From Bacteroidia bacterium (GTDB lineage: Bacteria; Bacteroidota; Bacteroidia; Chitinophagales; Chitinophagaceae): DNA of 64,000 nucleotides. The notes under the pieces were generated by a model. That model saw only the letters and a list, made by a program, of their open reading frames with translations. It was not told the origin of the DNA and did no database searches. This document shows, in pieces, positions 22,625 to 30,492 of the stretch. The translations under genes were made by a program, and so were the position numbers. The first letter of the stretch is position 1, and each line of letters starts with the position of its first letter. Location: contig JAUIBA010000004.1 of the NCBI GenBank assembly GCA_030427635.1, positions 124,001 through 188,000 of the forward strand. The letters run 5' to 3'.

Positions 22625-22713
22625 GGAGAGATGCTCGAGTGGTTGAAGAGGCACGCCTGGAAAGTGTGTATATCTGTCAAAGGGTATCCAGGGTTCGAAT
22701 CCCTGTCTCTCCG
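22625..22713 (+). tRNA. tRNA-Ser (anticodon GGA)
   Basis: Acceptor GGAGAGA/TCTCTCC, anticodon arm CCTGGAAAG, long variable arm, T-arm CAGGGTTCGAATCCCTG; CCA not encoded. Confidence 0.93.
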
Positions 22714-22730
22714 CCTTCGCCCGCCGAAGC
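22706..22730 (+). repeat. Left copy of tRNA-tail direct repeat
   Basis: TCTCTCCGCCTTCGCCCGCCGAAGC, 22/25 identical to 27117..27141. Confidence 0.75.
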
Positions 22731-22753
22731 GGGCTACGGCGGACAAAGTCCGC
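22719..22753 (+). other. GC-rich tandem hairpins downstream of tRNA-Ser
   Basis: GCCCGC-CGAA-GCGGGC followed by GCGGAC-AAA-GTCCGC. Confidence 0.7.
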
Positions 22754-22791
22754 AAGTAGTGCCGCGAAGGAGGGCCGCCCGAAATGGGCCT

Positions 22792-22823
22792 ATACCCAAC
22801 AGAGATTAAATCTTTGTTGGGTA
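22792..22823 (+). terminator. Probable tRNA-Ser transcript terminator
   Basis: ATACCCAACA...TGTTGGGTAT followed by TTTTATTT. Confidence 0.7.
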
Positions 22824-22857
22824 TTTTATTTGTACTTTCAGAGATATTTCTATCCCG

Positions 22858-23097
22858 GTGTGGTACAACGTTTATATCCTGGAACTCAGCAATGGCAAAC
22901 ATTACGTAGGCTGCACAATCAACGTAAAGGAAAGATTCATACGACATACAAAAGGCTATGTACCAGCTACCAGATTACATTTACCTGTAAGACTTTTATG
23001 GTGCTGCTCCTTCCCTGATAGATATAAAGCTTACGATTTTGAGCGGTATTTGAAATCTGGTTCCGGAAGAGCGTTTGCTTCGAAGCATCTCTACTAA
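22858..23097 (+). CDS. Small GIY-YIG nuclease domain protein (GTG start)
   Basis: YNVYILELSNGKHYVGCTINVKERFIRHTKG...AYDFERYLKSGSGRAFASKHL. Confidence 0.88.
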   Translation: MWYNVYILELSNGKHYVGCTINVKERFIRHTKGYVPATRLHLPVRLLWCCSFPDRYKAYDFERYLKSGSGRAFASKHLY

Positions 23098-23130
23098 AAA
23101 TCAGCAGCACTCGCTAATCTTCTATAAAAA

Positions 23131-23220
23131 TTCGAAAATTGTCCCTTACAGCCCGCAGAAATGTAAAACCCGCGCTTTTCGTGGGTTTTGTCGTTCGAAC
23201 TGTCCCACCTCCTCATTTTA
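23131..23220 (+). repeat. Degenerate punctuation repeat A
   Basis: TTCGAAAATTGTCCCTTACAGCCCGCAGAAATGTAAA...CACCTCCT; resembles the repeat at 25621. Confidence 0.55.
23165..23189 (+). terminator. Rho-independent-like hairpin
   Basis: AAAACCCGCG-CTTTT-CGTGGGTTTT. Confidence 0.65.
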
Positions 23221-23341
23221 TTGGACAATATAAAAATATTCTTCAGGTAAAAAAACGTGTTTTTCACGTTTTTCCCAAATTACTTTGATAATACATTTGA
23301 TAGTAAGCATTGCAGTCTTTCACACTTAAAACAAAAAATGT

Positions 23342-23761
23342 ATGCTGAATAAGATTTTTCAGAAAAGCACAAAGAAGAAAGGTGCAATACCCACATCGCT
23401 TGTCGAGACAAATGGCCTATGCACTTACTCATTTTCAGTCGTATGGACTAACAATGGTAGCAGCCTCTCCCTATACTCGTTAAACGCCAAACTGTCATCA
23501 AGTGGCAATTGGGTGAAATTGATTAGCATAGTCATTACCGATGATGATGGGGAAATTACCATCCAGATCGGCAACTTTGCAAAGGGTACTAGTATAGATA
23601 TGTTATTCGGAGTTTATCCTATGCAGGATATTCCCGAAGCGGCTATTTATGTGACTAATATGACGGAAGGCACTTCACAACAAACAGCTCCAGCAAATGG
23701 TACGCAGAAGCTCACCAAAGCTACAGCTTGGAATGGTCAATTCACAATAATATTATTTTAA
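23342..23761 (+). CDS. Hypothetical protein, predicted beta-rich; first gene of three-gene operon
   Basis: 139-aa ORF, stop 1 nt from next start; no family recognised. Confidence 0.7.
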   Translation: MLNKIFQKSTKKKGAIPTSLVETNGLCTYSFSVVWTNNGSSLSLYSLNAKLSSSGNWVKLISIVITDDDGEITIQIGNFAKGTSIDMLFGVYPMQDIPEAAIYVTNMTEGTSQQTAPANGTQKLTKATAWNGQFTIILF

Positions 23762-23762
23762 C

Positions 23763-24929
23763 ATGAAACATATCATTATTATATCGGGATTCTTATTTTT
23801 GAGCAGTGTTGCAATGGGCCAGCTTCAGGGTGGTTTTATTGCCGATGTGATACTTAACAATCCAAGTGATTATAGAAAACATGTCAAGCCATTAATTACT
23901 TCAGCAGCGGACCATCATTTATCTGACAGAGCAAGCTCGTTTACAGGTTCTAGCTATTTGTTTAGCTCAATAGACCTTTCGTCATATGAGTTGCTGTCGG
24001 CCAATCTATCGTTCACCAATGAGCAAAATAATGCTAAAGTAGTTTTCGCTCCTTACAAATTAAATAACCGGCCAGTAAGCGCATTAGCAGAAGGCATTAA
24101 ATTCAACTTGGCGTTACAAGATAATGTCGCCACGATTGGTGCCGCATTTGGTCATGACAATTCTTCATACCGATCAAAGAAATCCATAAAGCTCAGAAAG
24201 AAATTCTTTGACGATAATCCTATCCCCACACCTGAGGCATGGGAAGTTACCAAACATGGGTCCTTTAGCGAGTATGAGGCCCATGTGCTTAATCCGTTTA
24301 CACGAAAAATGATGGACAGCCTCCTCCTTGCTTTTGACGAAAGTCGAGCGAAAAGTGTTTTCAAATGGTCAGCCGGTTACAATATACAGTTGTTCCCGAA
24401 CCTTTTTGCTCAAGGAAGCGTTTCTAGTTTTGACAGCCTAAATGCGTTCAATATGAAATCACATAATTTTTCAGCAACATGTACATACAGCTGGGATAAT
24501 GCGAGATTTACGGCACGGTCATCTTATAATCAAATTTGGTCTCGTGCCATAGCAGCAGAGGGCCAAAAATTAGTGCCCTATTACGGTCCGTCAATTGCAA
24601 TCAGTGCTCGTCTATTCAGTTTTATGAAAAAAGAGCAACTCCGCAAGTCGGAAAATTATAAGAAAAGCCTGTTCATACCTTCATTGATTTTTGGGGTATC
24701 ATGGGATGGTAAATATGCGGATGGCAGCAAGCAGTACGTACCCTACTATCAGGATAAGATAATGAACAAGACAGTAACAATGCCATATTTTGACATTTTA
24801 ATAACGCCAGCTGCACAATTCAGGATAGGCTTGCCAATTACCAATTCAGTCTACCCTAGTAAAACTAATGAAGTTGCTGGCGGCACAAATATTCAGTATA
24901 ATCTGAAGATATCCGATTTGTCAAAATGA
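23763..24929 (+). CDS. Hypothetical secreted/outer-membrane-like protein
   Basis: Signal peptide MKHIIIISGFLFLSSVAMGQ; alternating aromatic/polar beta-strand-like segments. Confidence 0.72.
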   Translation: MKHIIIISGFLFLSSVAMGQLQGGFIADVILNNPSDYRKHVKPLITSAADHHLSDRASSFTGSSYLFSSIDLSSYELLSANLSFTNEQNNAKVVFAPYKLNNRPVSALAEGIKFNLALQDNVATIGAAFGHDNSSYRSKKSIKLRKKFFDDNPIPTPEAWEVTKHGSFSEYEAHVLNPFTRKMMDSLLLAFDESRAKSVFKWSAGYNIQLFPNLFAQGSVSSFDSLNAFNMKSHNFSATCTYSWDNARFTARSSYNQIWSRAIAAEGQKLVPYYGPSIAISARLFSFMKKEQLRKSENYKKSLFIPSLIFGVSWDGKYADGSKQYVPYYQDKIMNKTVTMPYFDILITPAAQFRIGLPITNSVYPSKTNEVAGGTNIQYNLKISDLSK

Positions 24930-25483
24930 TGAATCTAAACATCAAAAGGAAACCCATGAGAACATTCAGAAGCATATTCATTTTAATAGGAGCATTCGCA
25001 TACGGCTGGCTTTTATGTATACTTACCAAAAATGGCATGCCTGATATTATGGCCCTTGCCGTTAGCATCGTAACACCTATTGCAACAGGTGCAGTGATTG
25101 GCAGGCCCATTATAAACAGCATTCGGAGAATGAACAACGAGGACGATAAGGAAAAGTTGATTACCACGATGGCCTCTTTTTTTTGCTTGCTCGCTGTCGG
25201 CATTGCTATCGGATCTACTACTGGAACAATATTTCAAAAGCATGTATTAGCAAATTGGGACAAGGGTGCCGAAAAAGAGGTATGGCAAACTGAAGTTGAA
25301 GGATGGAAACAGATATTGTCGGACCCAAAGGATAAAAACGGTATTGGAATGAAATTGTTCGAGAAGTATCTTGGGAAACCGGTAAATAACCCTAGTCAAA
25401 ATCAGTTGCATTTAACTTCACAGCAAAATTCTCAGCAGGGGTTCACTGCCCCAGCGTCGAAGGATATGCAGAGAACTCAATGA
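24926..25483 (+). CDS. Hypothetical membrane protein
   Basis: Several hydrophobic segments; ATGA overlap with upstream ORF (alternative start at the internal Met, MRTFRS). Confidence 0.72.
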   Translation: MMNLNIKRKPMRTFRSIFILIGAFAYGWLLCILTKNGMPDIMALAVSIVTPIATGAVIGRPIINSIRRMNNEDDKEKLITTMASFFCLLAVGIAIGSTTGTIFQKHVLANWDKGAEKEVWQTEVEGWKQILSDPKDKNGIGMKLFEKYLGKPVNNPSQNQLHLTSQQNSQQGFTAPASKDMQRTQ

Positions 25484-25620
25484 TGGTGGTTGGGACTCAG
25501 TAAATTATATTGCAAATAATTGCCGGCTGGTACGTTCTGGGGGAATTTTTGAACAACTGCGATCTTTATCAAGCGCTCGTATGGGAATCCAACACTGCGT
25601 TCAAATCCTCAACAAAGAAG

Positions 25621-25693
25621 TTCGAAAGTTGTCCCCTTCCCTCCGCAAGAAGCTCCGCAGAAATGTAGAGCTTTATTGTTTATGCTCACCTCC
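25621..25693 (+). repeat. Degenerate punctuation repeat B
   Basis: TTCGAAAGTTGTCCCCTTCCCTCCGC...CCGCAGAAATGTAGA...CACCTCCT. Confidence 0.55.
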
Positions 25694-25801
25694 TATCTCG
25701 CCATACTATTTGATAATGTTGTATTTTAAAACAATCAAATATTGTGTACAAAAAACAGTTTATACAATTATTTACGCAATGCAAATATCATGTAGGTTCA
25801 A

Positions 25802-27007
25802 TTAAAATGGTAAATCGTCAAAACTATCAGGAAGTGTACGGATTATTTCTTCAAGCTCTTCTTTCGTTATCTGCCTTTTAGTAACTTCAATATCCATTTG
25901 ACAATGCAACTCTATTTGCTGCAATATATTCTCCGAAAATAAATTTATTTTGAACTTTACGTTCATTGATGTCTTGGGATACAGCAGCAAAACTGTTTCT
26001 AATACTTTAATTTTGTTTGGTAGTAGCGAAAATTGCTGTGAGCTAAACTCCCACACATTTGATGATGTCTTAGTCAATGTATCTTTAAATAATCTTCTTA
26101 TTTGCAACTCAGTTTCCAAAGGTAAATCCGAATTATATGATCGCCTGTGAATACCCCCACGTTCAGCAGACATATTTTGTATTATTAACTCATCTCCTCC
26201 AATAGATGAGTTTATTGCGAGTTCCACGATTACGTTTCCAAAAATCCTACCAGTGTTGTTTTGAAGCCCCAATAATACCGGAATAACATTTTTGCTATTC
26301 ACATAAGAATGCAACGCATTTTCAAATAGCCAACTACGTTTTTCTGAAACTCGCTTGTCTTTTTTAGCAATATTTTGGATACGTGTATTATCAAATTCAA
26401 CTCGCTCAATACTGATTTTCTCATGAGTACTAAAAAGTAGCTCAGTTTCTCTATTGATAAATGAGAAAGCTATTATTTCTTTTATTGATTCTTTTCTTTC
26501 CTGAAGCTCCCTAATTTTCATTTCAAGTTGCCTTGATATTTTATCCCTGAATTCTACAATAGAATTAAAGTGTTCTACGAGAGCCACTTTATAGATATCT
26601 TCCCTAAACCTGTTTAATGCTTCAAGTTGAGTTAAATTAATTTGAGAAGGATCTTTACCTCGTTTTGAGAAATATAACATTACAGGTTTACCTGCTTTAG
26701 ATACTCGTTTTATCTCTTCTATTGTACCGCTTAAATCTTCGCCTGTAGGAGAGCCTACCTTTGTCCAAAAAAAACCTATTAAAAGATCGCAATCGTCAAC
26801 AATTTGCTTGTTTATTATCTCTTGAGGTCTATTCCCATACGTGGGTGATGAGTGCGTCTCCCATCTGATTGGTAACAGAACAATTTTCTTGCTAAAAGAA
26901 TTTAAATCATTCCAATCTTGAATCACCCTTGCCGCGACTTCTCGTTCTTCATCAACATCGGAAGGGGATGCAATCAATATTCTATATACAGTAGATTCGT
27001 AAGACAT
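25802..27007 (-). CDS. DUF4062 domain protein with unknown C-terminal region
   Basis: YRILIASPSDVDEEREVAARVIQDWNDLNS...DLLIGFFWTKVGSPTGE is the DUF4062 signature; start refined to MSYESTVYR. Confidence 0.85.
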   Translation of the reverse strand: MSYESTVYRILIASPSDVDEEREVAARVIQDWNDLNSFSKKIVLLPIRWETHSSPTYGNRPQEIINKQIVDDCDLLIGFFWTKVGSPTGEDLSGTIEEIKRVSKAGKPVMLYFSKRGKDPSQINLTQLEALNRFREDIYKVALVEHFNSIVEFRDKISRQLEMKIRELQERKESIKEIIAFSFINRETELLFSTHEKISIERVEFDNTRIQNIAKKDKRVSEKRSWLFENALHSYVNSKNVIPVLLGLQNNTGRIFGNVIVELAINSSIGGDELIIQNMSAERGGIHRRSYNSDLPLETELQIRRLFKDTLTKTSSNVWEFSSQQFSLLPNKIKVLETVLLLYPKTSMNVKFKINLFSENILQQIELHCQMDIEVTKRQITKEELEEIIRTLPDSFDDLPF

Positions 27008-27100
27008 GTCCCTTGACTTTATAATCAACTTACAAAATACAAATGATTTATACTTTTCTACTATTAAGTCATTGTGCTAAATTGTAATCTCTAAAAAAAA

Positions 27101-27125
27101 TCGAAATTTGTCACCTTCTCTCCGC
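27101..27125 (+). repeat. Degenerate punctuation repeat C
   Basis: TCGAAATTTGTCACCTTCTCTCCGC, 22/25 identical to 25622..25646. Confidence 0.65.
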
Positions 27126-27141
27126 CTTCACCGGCCTAAGC
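27117..27141 (+). repeat. Right copy of tRNA-tail direct repeat
   Basis: TCTCTCCGCCTTCACCGGCCTAAGC, 22/25 identical to 22706..22730. Confidence 0.75.
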
Positions 27142-27264
27142 CTTTCAACAAAGGCGGTCAGCTCATCGATTAGCACTTAGCTTATCGAAAAACAAAATTC
27201 ATCAGTCAGGCTTCGGCGAGTCATGTCCACTTTTTTGCTTAGTTCAGCTCGTTATTTAGCTAAT

Positions 27265-27360
27265 ATGGCACACGTCTGTATCCTTGAACTATCAAACAGC
27301 AAACACTATATTGGGAAGGATATAGCATACACCCACTATTCCATAGCTTCATTATATTAG
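27265..27360 (+). pseudogene. Truncated GIY-YIG N-terminal remnant
   Basis: MAHVCILELSNSKHYIGK... aligns with VYILELSNGKHYVGCT of the intact copy, then diverges to a stop. Confidence 0.7.
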
Positions 27361-30293: not shown

Positions 30294-30492
30294 AGTGAAT
30301 ATTTTTTATGCCTACTCTGATGCAGATTTTCGGCTACCTCTGTCTTATATTTTGTAGGTGTTTTGCATTGCTTCCTGCATATCCTCTTTGCTCAGAAACA
30401 ACAATATCAAAAGTAGGTTTGTATATCACCGGCATCAACTGCGAAAAGTCGCAGGTTGCACTAAATTTGTTATCTTGTAAAAAATATCTGAT

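What the first reader, a model, noticed from the sequence alone, without database searches (positions are those of the whole stretch)
23131..27125. Three degenerate direct repeats (TCGAAA-N-TTGTC..CTCCGC) separate the island into cassettes
Seen: 23132 TCGAAAATTGTCCCTTACAGCCCGC, 25622 TCGAAAGTTGTCCCCTTCCCTCCGC and 27101 TCGAAATTTGTCACCTTCTCTCCGC. B and C match at 22/25; A and B additionally share CCGCAGAAATGTARA and a downstream CACCTCCT. Cassette 1 (three genes, 23342-25483) lies between A and B; the DUF4062 gene lies between B and C. The repeats resemble a corrupted T-loop to acceptor 3' end of the tRNA (TTCGAATCCCTGTCTCTCCGCC). Inference: serial insertions at successive tRNA-tail-like sites (accretion array).
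Basis: partly seen in the sequence, partly recalled or inferred. Interest (0 to 1): 0.7.

Follow-up and report, generated by a model that had tools for sequence, protein, structure and literature searches.

The report
Stacked mobile cassettes at a tRNA
The three repeats are scars left where small mobile DNA elements were inserted one after another next to a tRNA gene, and the scar DNA also appears to encode a detachable tail of the enzyme that inserts such elements, so that integrating would change the enzyme.

Summary
The repeats are real. They belong to a family of ~54-bp element ends spread through Chitinophagaceae. An HMM trained without this genome ranks B, A and C as its three best window hits (1.3e-12, 4.7e-6, 0.16), all on one strand. 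The array, outward from tRNA-Ser(GGA): E1, a 0.44-kb GIY-YIG mini-element; E2, a three-gene cassette; E3, a DUF4062 cassette; E4, an older GIY-YIG remnant. Relatives show the same grammar, including a clean occupied/empty comparison (G031).

The accretion reading is supported, with a change: the sites are not corrupted tRNA ends used as successive targets, but attP arms of large-serine-recombinase (LSR) elements, left at the far end of each insertion at one tRNA. LSR genes in the genus lie at element left ends and read into the antisense tRNA. On the reverse strand the arm encodes a conserved peptide (GQLSNxFxxDLxxI) with protein-level constraint, in phase with the LSR across att in 6 of 6 two-ended elements (Ser, Pro, Asp, Glu). 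Inferred: the circular form makes a tailed LSR and integration swaps the tail. No circle was seen; what the tail does is untested. The window's own cassettes lack a recombinase, so their mobilisation by an LSR is inferred from shared arms.

The parts
22625..22714 (+). tRNA-Ser(GGA), the insertion target (attB is its 3' end)
   Evidence: ARAGORN; same tRNA followed by different cassettes in relatives
22715..23156 (+). Element E1: GIY-YIG mini-element of 0.44 kb, from tRNA tail to scar A
   Evidence: GIY ORF PF01541 8.8e-12; same unit tRNA-Ser | GIY-YIG | site in L170
22858..23097 (+). GIY-YIG gene of E1 (GTG start assumed)
23115..23156 (+). Scar A (attP arm + old DNA)
   Evidence: HMM E=4.7e-6
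23157..25646 (+). Element E2: left-end terminator, second GTTCGAA core (23193-23206), genes 23342-23761, 23763-24929, 24926-25483, scar B
   Evidence: genes without Pfam match
25596..25646 (+). Scar B
   Evidence: HMM E=1.3e-12
25569..25646 (-). Tail-coding frame of scar B: AEGRGQLSNFFVEDLNAVLDSHTSA*, no start codon
   Evidence: peptide profile hit 4.2e-10, the only one in this genome
25647..27125 (+). Element E3: cassette with the DUF4062 gene, ends in scar C
25802..27028 (-). DUF4062 gene (sub-threshold Pfam match 1.3e-4; PADLOC candidate family PDC-S60 4.2e-28)
27101..27125 (+). Scar C (degenerate)
   Evidence: HMM E=0.16, flank homology
27126..27357 (+). Element E4: remnant of an older GIY-YIG unit (truncated ORF at 27265-27357)

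Best explanation
23131-27125 is the middle of an accretion array: at least four small integrative elements stacked one behind another downstream of tRNA-Ser(GGA), newest next to the tRNA. Every insertion restores the tRNA tail and leaves at its far end a scar (attR): the element's own attP arm joined to the old DNA. Repeats A, B and C are these scars. The arms are of the type found at the far end of large-serine-recombinase (LSR) elements. In autonomous copies elsewhere the LSR gene lies at the left end and its 3' end reads into the antisense tRNA. In the circular form the same frame would run through attP into the arm and add a conserved tail of about 20-30 residues (GQLSNxFxxDLxxIxxF); integration replaces that tail by antisense-tRNA residues or a stop. 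The window's cassettes carry no recombinase and were probably moved in trans. Shown: scar family, array grammar, occupied/empty comparison, LSR position, frame agreement, coding constraint. Inferred: that an LSR moved these cassettes, that the tailed protein is made, and that tail loss affects direction or stability.
For: HMM ranks A, B, C as top window hits. Motif in 28/35 genus genomes and, with a stricter pattern, in 48 Bacteroidota stretches including Chitinophaga, Puia, Pseudobacter and Flavihumibacter. Sites in a locus always share one strand, neighbours 0.6-3.3 kb apart, target tRNA upstream on the same strand where seen. 60/74 sites followed by a terminator-like hairpin against 107/600 random windows. 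G031: removing the tRNA-to-site element restores the window arrangement. Recurrent tRNA-Ser | cassette | site, including the GIY unit. LSR with Resolvase and Recombinase domains at the left edge, stop inside the antisense tRNA. Tail frame similarity 1.085 against a column-shuffle null of 0.608 +/- 0.049; codon-position entropies 1.38/1.19/1.60. Six of six two-ended elements keep the LSR frame in phase with the tail. In G008 an older LSR really continues into a tail supplied by the newer element stacked in front.
Against: No circular DNA seen. This genome has no LSR of the family now, so mobilisation of E1-E3 in trans is inferred. One phage-like contig has a 65% LSR without the tail. Three of the six element pairs span 32-42 kb, so their end assignment is less certain. 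Some relatives carry tyrosine recombinases directly after the same tail or after a site. No allelic copies of E2 or E3 cargo were found.
Confidence: 0.72

Rival explanations
1. The scars come from tyrosine-recombinase islands. A tyrosine integrase uses the tRNA-Ser 3' end as attB, and A, B and C are decayed displaced tRNA ends from tandem island insertions.
For: A tyrosine recombinase follows the tRNA-Ser tail in G021 (L025), and relatives of it follow a site in Puia and a related MAG. True tRNA-Ser 3' halves, each with a terminator, lie in tandem downstream of the tRNA in G010, G026, G032 and after a site in G001.
Against: A, B and C lack the upstream tRNA half; they carry a conserved non-tRNA arm with a 5-nt insertion shared by Ser- and Pro-type sites. 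The arm joins LSR elements in frame. Sites preceding a tyrosine integrase belong to the element before it.
Confidence: 0.15
2. Integron-like system: the sites are recombination sites at cassette ends, used by a dedicated integrase to capture and shuffle cassettes inside arrays.
For: Short head-to-tail cassettes with a site after each; many arrays have no tRNA within the 8-20 kb read.
Against: No significant single-strand folding of A, B or C (z 0.78 to -0.44), unlike attC. Where a proximal end is visible it is a tRNA tail. The joint is an arm also found at the far end of LSR elements.
Confidence: 0.08
3. Chance or homologous duplication: C is a chance match and A/B are a simple tandem duplication of a non-functional sequence.
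For: C alone scores only E=0.16.
Against: A and B match a profile trained on other genomes, C has a homologous flank, and the family is widespread with conserved orientation.
Confidence: 0.02

Closest known systems
Staphylococcal cassette chromosome (SCC) composite islands (Ccr large serine recombinases at rlmH/orfX)
   Same: LSR-type elements stacked in tandem at the 3' end of one gene, with recombinase-less elements and att remnants between them; the LSR has a sub-threshold match to CcrB (2e-19, cut-off not reached). Tandem insertion of ACME with SCCmec is described in PMC5964201 (abstract).
   Different: Targets are tRNA 3' ends of many kinds, not rlmH; elements are as small as 0.44 kb; the arm encodes an LSR tail in phase; different LSR family.
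Archaeal suicidal integrases (SSV, pTN3, pT26-2)
   Same: The attachment site lies inside the recombinase gene, so integration at a tRNA alters the gene (PMC8371274).
   Different: Those are tyrosine recombinases, cut into two inactive parts, and described as exclusively archaeal; here a bacterial serine recombinase would lose only its last ~20-30 residues.
Integration-dependent immunity of mycobacteriophage BPs
   Same: attP inside a gene; integration replaces the protein's C-terminus and changes its stability (PMC4557955).
   Different: There the gene is the repressor; here the recombinase itself. No stability effect is known here.
Integrons and attC cassette arrays
   Same: Head-to-tail small cassettes with a site after each.
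   Different: No attC-like folding, anchored at a tRNA where the proximal end is seen, different recombinase class.
tRNA-targeted genomic islands (Islander type)
   Same: The tRNA gene is restored by the element and a displaced fragment marks the far end (PMC4383910 abstract).
   Different: The far-end mark here is mainly the element's own arm, not a copy of the tRNA end.

Membership tests
Large serine recombinase (recombinase linked to the sites) | Resolvase + Recombinase (+ zinc ribbon) domains | tested here: met
   PF00239 2.9e-25, PF07508 7.6e-11, PF13408 6.4e-4 below cut-off in L065
Large serine recombinase element | Recombinase acts on attP x attB | not testable with these tools
   Only boundaries and frames seen
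Large serine recombinase element | Recombinase present in the window's own array | tested here: not met
   No LSR of the family in this genome at E<=1e-20; E1-E3 are at most non-autonomous
tRNA-targeted genomic island | Element starts at the restored tRNA 3' end and removal restores the empty site | tested here: met
   G031 against the window; L170 and others
tRNA-targeted genomic island | Displaced copy of the tRNA 3' end at the far edge | tested here: not met
   Far edge is a conserved arm sharing only the terminal GCGG-N8-GGA geometry
SCC composite island | CcrA/B/C recombinase | tested here: not met
   CcrB model matched at 69.6 bits against a cut-off of 900
SCC composite island | Insertion at rlmH | tested here: not met
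   Target is tRNA
Integron cassette array | attC sites that fold as single strands | tested here: not met
   z-scores 0.78 to -0.44 for A, B, C
Integron cassette array | IntI-type integrase at the array head | not tested
   No IntI search was made; the head of the window array is a tRNA and a GIY-YIG gene
Archaeal suicidal integrase | attP inside the recombinase gene | tested here: inconclusive
   Frames agree in 6/6 elements and a fused copy exists at a tandem junction, but no circle was seen
Archaeal suicidal integrase | Tyrosine recombinase | tested here: not met
   The linked recombinase is a serine recombinase

The most novel reading that the evidence does not exclude
A bacterial serine recombinase whose gene spans its own attachment site: only the circular element makes the long, tailed enzyme, and integration at a tRNA replaces the tail by antisense-tRNA residues, locking the element in or altering the enzyme's stability. 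The same tail-coding arm serves as the attachment arm of recombinase-free cassettes that pile up at tRNAs, and stacking a cassette in front of an older element gives that element's LSR a tail again.
Probability: 0.5. Interest if true: 0.82.

Novelty: new variant of a known kind. Interest (0 to 1): 0.7.

Why it matters
It describes a dispersed cassette-capture system in Chitinophagaceae (tail profile in 56 of 200 family genomes and 39 of 104 genera) with readable insertion order and partly defence-like cargo. It also offers a bacterial candidate for a recombinase gene crossing its own att site, a trait that a 2021 review calls exclusively archaeal (PMC8371274). Direction control of LSRs is usually ascribed to a separate directionality factor (general knowledge); a tail swapped by integration would be a built-in switch and is directly testable. 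The LSRs together address many different tRNA 3' ends.

Tried and rejected
1) Sites as plain decayed tRNA-Ser tails: rejected, they share a 27-bp arm and a 5-nt insertion with tRNA-Pro-type sites. 2) The reverse-strand peptide as a free small protein: rejected, no consistent start codon. 3) Peptide as the end of a long chromosomal gene: nothing convincing in 200 family genomes; nearly all hits lie in short frames. 4) attC-like folding: none. 5) Phages and plasmids as the free form: only distant serine recombinases; one IMG/VR contig with a 65% LSR but no tail; three more IMG/VR scans gave no close relative. 6) Allelic copies of E2/E3 cargo: only a 46% homologue of one E2 gene in G002, not near a site. 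7) Structure of an LSR with a natural tail: low confidence (pTM 0.39); tail a helix after a disordered linker, nothing to read. 8) Exact 15-mer in 398 phylum genomes: chance level outside the family. 10) Literature searches for such arrays or LSR tails: nothing matching among the papers held.

Full report
Observation. The three repeats are present at the stated positions. B and C match at 22/25 and shuffles give none. A profile built from 81 sites in other genomes ranks B, A and C first, second and third in the window, all on +. C is weak as a motif, but its right flank is clearly homologous to what follows such sites, or the tRNA itself, in G028, G031 and G029.

A GIY-YIG gene (PF01541, 8.8e-12) fills the 0.44 kb between tRNA-Ser(GGA) and site A, and a truncated second GIY-YIG ORF follows site C. 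The array is therefore tRNA | E1 GIY | A | E2 three genes | B | E3 DUF4062 | C | E4 GIY remnant. The DUF4062 protein matches candidate defence family PDC-S60.

The site family. The motif occurs in 28 of 35 genus genomes with at most one mismatch. A stricter pattern found 48 stretches, all in Bacteroidota records, among them Chitinophaga, Puia, Pseudobacter and Flavihumibacter. It is absent from viral contigs and at chance level in a phylum-wide sample. The consensus is ..CCTTCAAATCCTCNACAAAAAAGTTCGAAAGTTGTCCC followed by NNNCNNNCCGC, or by a tail ending CATCCCGAC in a tRNA-Pro variant. In 77 of 112 sites the terminal GCGG/GTCGG sits 12 nt from GGA, exactly as in the real tRNAs, followed by CAACT that tRNAs lack. 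Sites in one locus always share a strand and neighbours are 0.6-3.3 kb apart. The target tRNA lies upstream on the same strand where both are seen. 81% of sites are followed by a terminator-like hairpin, against 18% of random windows, so each element seems to bring a tRNA terminator at its left end.

Boundaries in relatives. In G031 a 4725-bp element lies between the tRNA-Ser tail and a site, and after the site comes the GIY unit that directly abuts the tRNA tail in the window; removing the element restores that arrangement. In L170 the unit tRNA-Ser | GIY-YIG | site recurs with 412 bp from tRNA to site, and cassettes with one or a few genes fill the same interval in L178, L190, L181, L200 and L205. 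In G029, where the upstream Mpl gene is conserved, DNA like that at C follows the tRNA directly. These comparisons support accretion with the newest element next to the tRNA.

The recombinase. The G031 element, and one at the same tRNA in G009, carry a large serine recombinase at the left edge on the reverse strand, with its stop codon inside the antisense tRNA. Relatives occur in 29 of 35 genus genomes but not in this one. Most LSR 3' ends inspected run into antisense tRNAs for Ser, Asp, Leu, Met, Arg, Pro, Glu, Phe or Ala.

The tail. Read on the reverse strand, the arm encodes GQLSNxFxxDLxxIxxF followed by a stop. Similarity in this frame (1.085) far exceeds that of column-shuffled alignments (0.608 +/- 0.049); codon position 2 is the most and position 3 the least conserved. 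There is no start codon, so the peptide must be joined to something. In six elements with both ends identified (tRNA Ser twice, Pro twice, Asp in Chitinophaga niastensis, Glu) the LSR frame and the tail frame agree across the junction core. In G008 the LSR of an older element does continue into such a tail, supplied by the right end of the newer element stacked in front of it. The inference is that circular elements make an LSR with this tail and that integration replaces it. What the tail does is unknown: loss of activity, change of direction and change of stability are all open. The predicted structure shows only a flexible linker and a low-confidence helix.

Limits. No circular DNA was seen. 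One phage-like LSR lacks the tail. Three of the six element pairs span 32-42 kb, so the end assignments there are less certain. Tyrosine recombinases also use this tRNA tail in some relatives, and a second class of scar, true tRNA-Ser 3' halves, occurs in several genomes. The cargo of E2 and E3 has no allelic copy that would date those insertions. The coding test uses sites selected for GGACAANTTTCGAAC, so only the residues after it are evidence.

Comparison. It works most like SCC composite islands, LSR-type stacking at the end of one gene, but fails SCC membership by recombinase family and target. The att-spanning gene resembles archaeal suicidal integrases, described as exclusively archaeal (PMC8371274), and the C-terminal swap resembles the BPs repressor (PMC4557955). 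It is not an integron by the folding test. Verdict: a new variant of a known kind, with the accretion reading largely confirmed and the tail-swap reading at about even odds.

Noticed in passing
L046 (G032), L055 (G010), L059 (G001), L063 (G026), downstream of tRNA-Ser: True tRNA-Ser 3' halves, from the anticodon loop to the tail, each followed by a terminator, in tandem; probably a second, tyrosine-recombinase-like class of scar.
   Followed up: partly
L042 (G004), L050 (G024), L055 (G010), L058 (G012), L059 (G001), L062 (G019), L063 (G026), upstream of tRNA-Ser: Partial 5' copies of the tRNA-Ser gene (positions 1 to about 43-70) lie upstream of the intact gene, twice with a 209-bp period in G026. 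Origin unexplained.
   Followed up: no
L321, L323, L330, L331 and other tRNA-Pro-type sites: Pro-type scars often come as pairs 119 or 128 bp apart; the second copy is partial (GTTCGAAAGTTGTCCAG..) and lacks the tail frame.
   Followed up: partly
L341 (G008:C354), 2.6-9.9 kb: The LSR element at tRNA-Glu carries a Fic-like protein and DrmA/DrmB-like proteins.
   Followed up: partly
L070 (G018:C100): The GIY-YIG unit also sits directly after a different tRNA-Ser (TGA anticodon by inspection).
   Followed up: no
L138 (G007:C61) 11328: A cassette end is fused directly to the next cassette start at GTTCGAA with the terminator unit missing, as if recombined between the two GTTCGAA copies.
   Followed up: no
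window 30309-30343 (-): DUF805b RNA element, 42.4 bits against a gathering score of 35.6.
   Followed up: no
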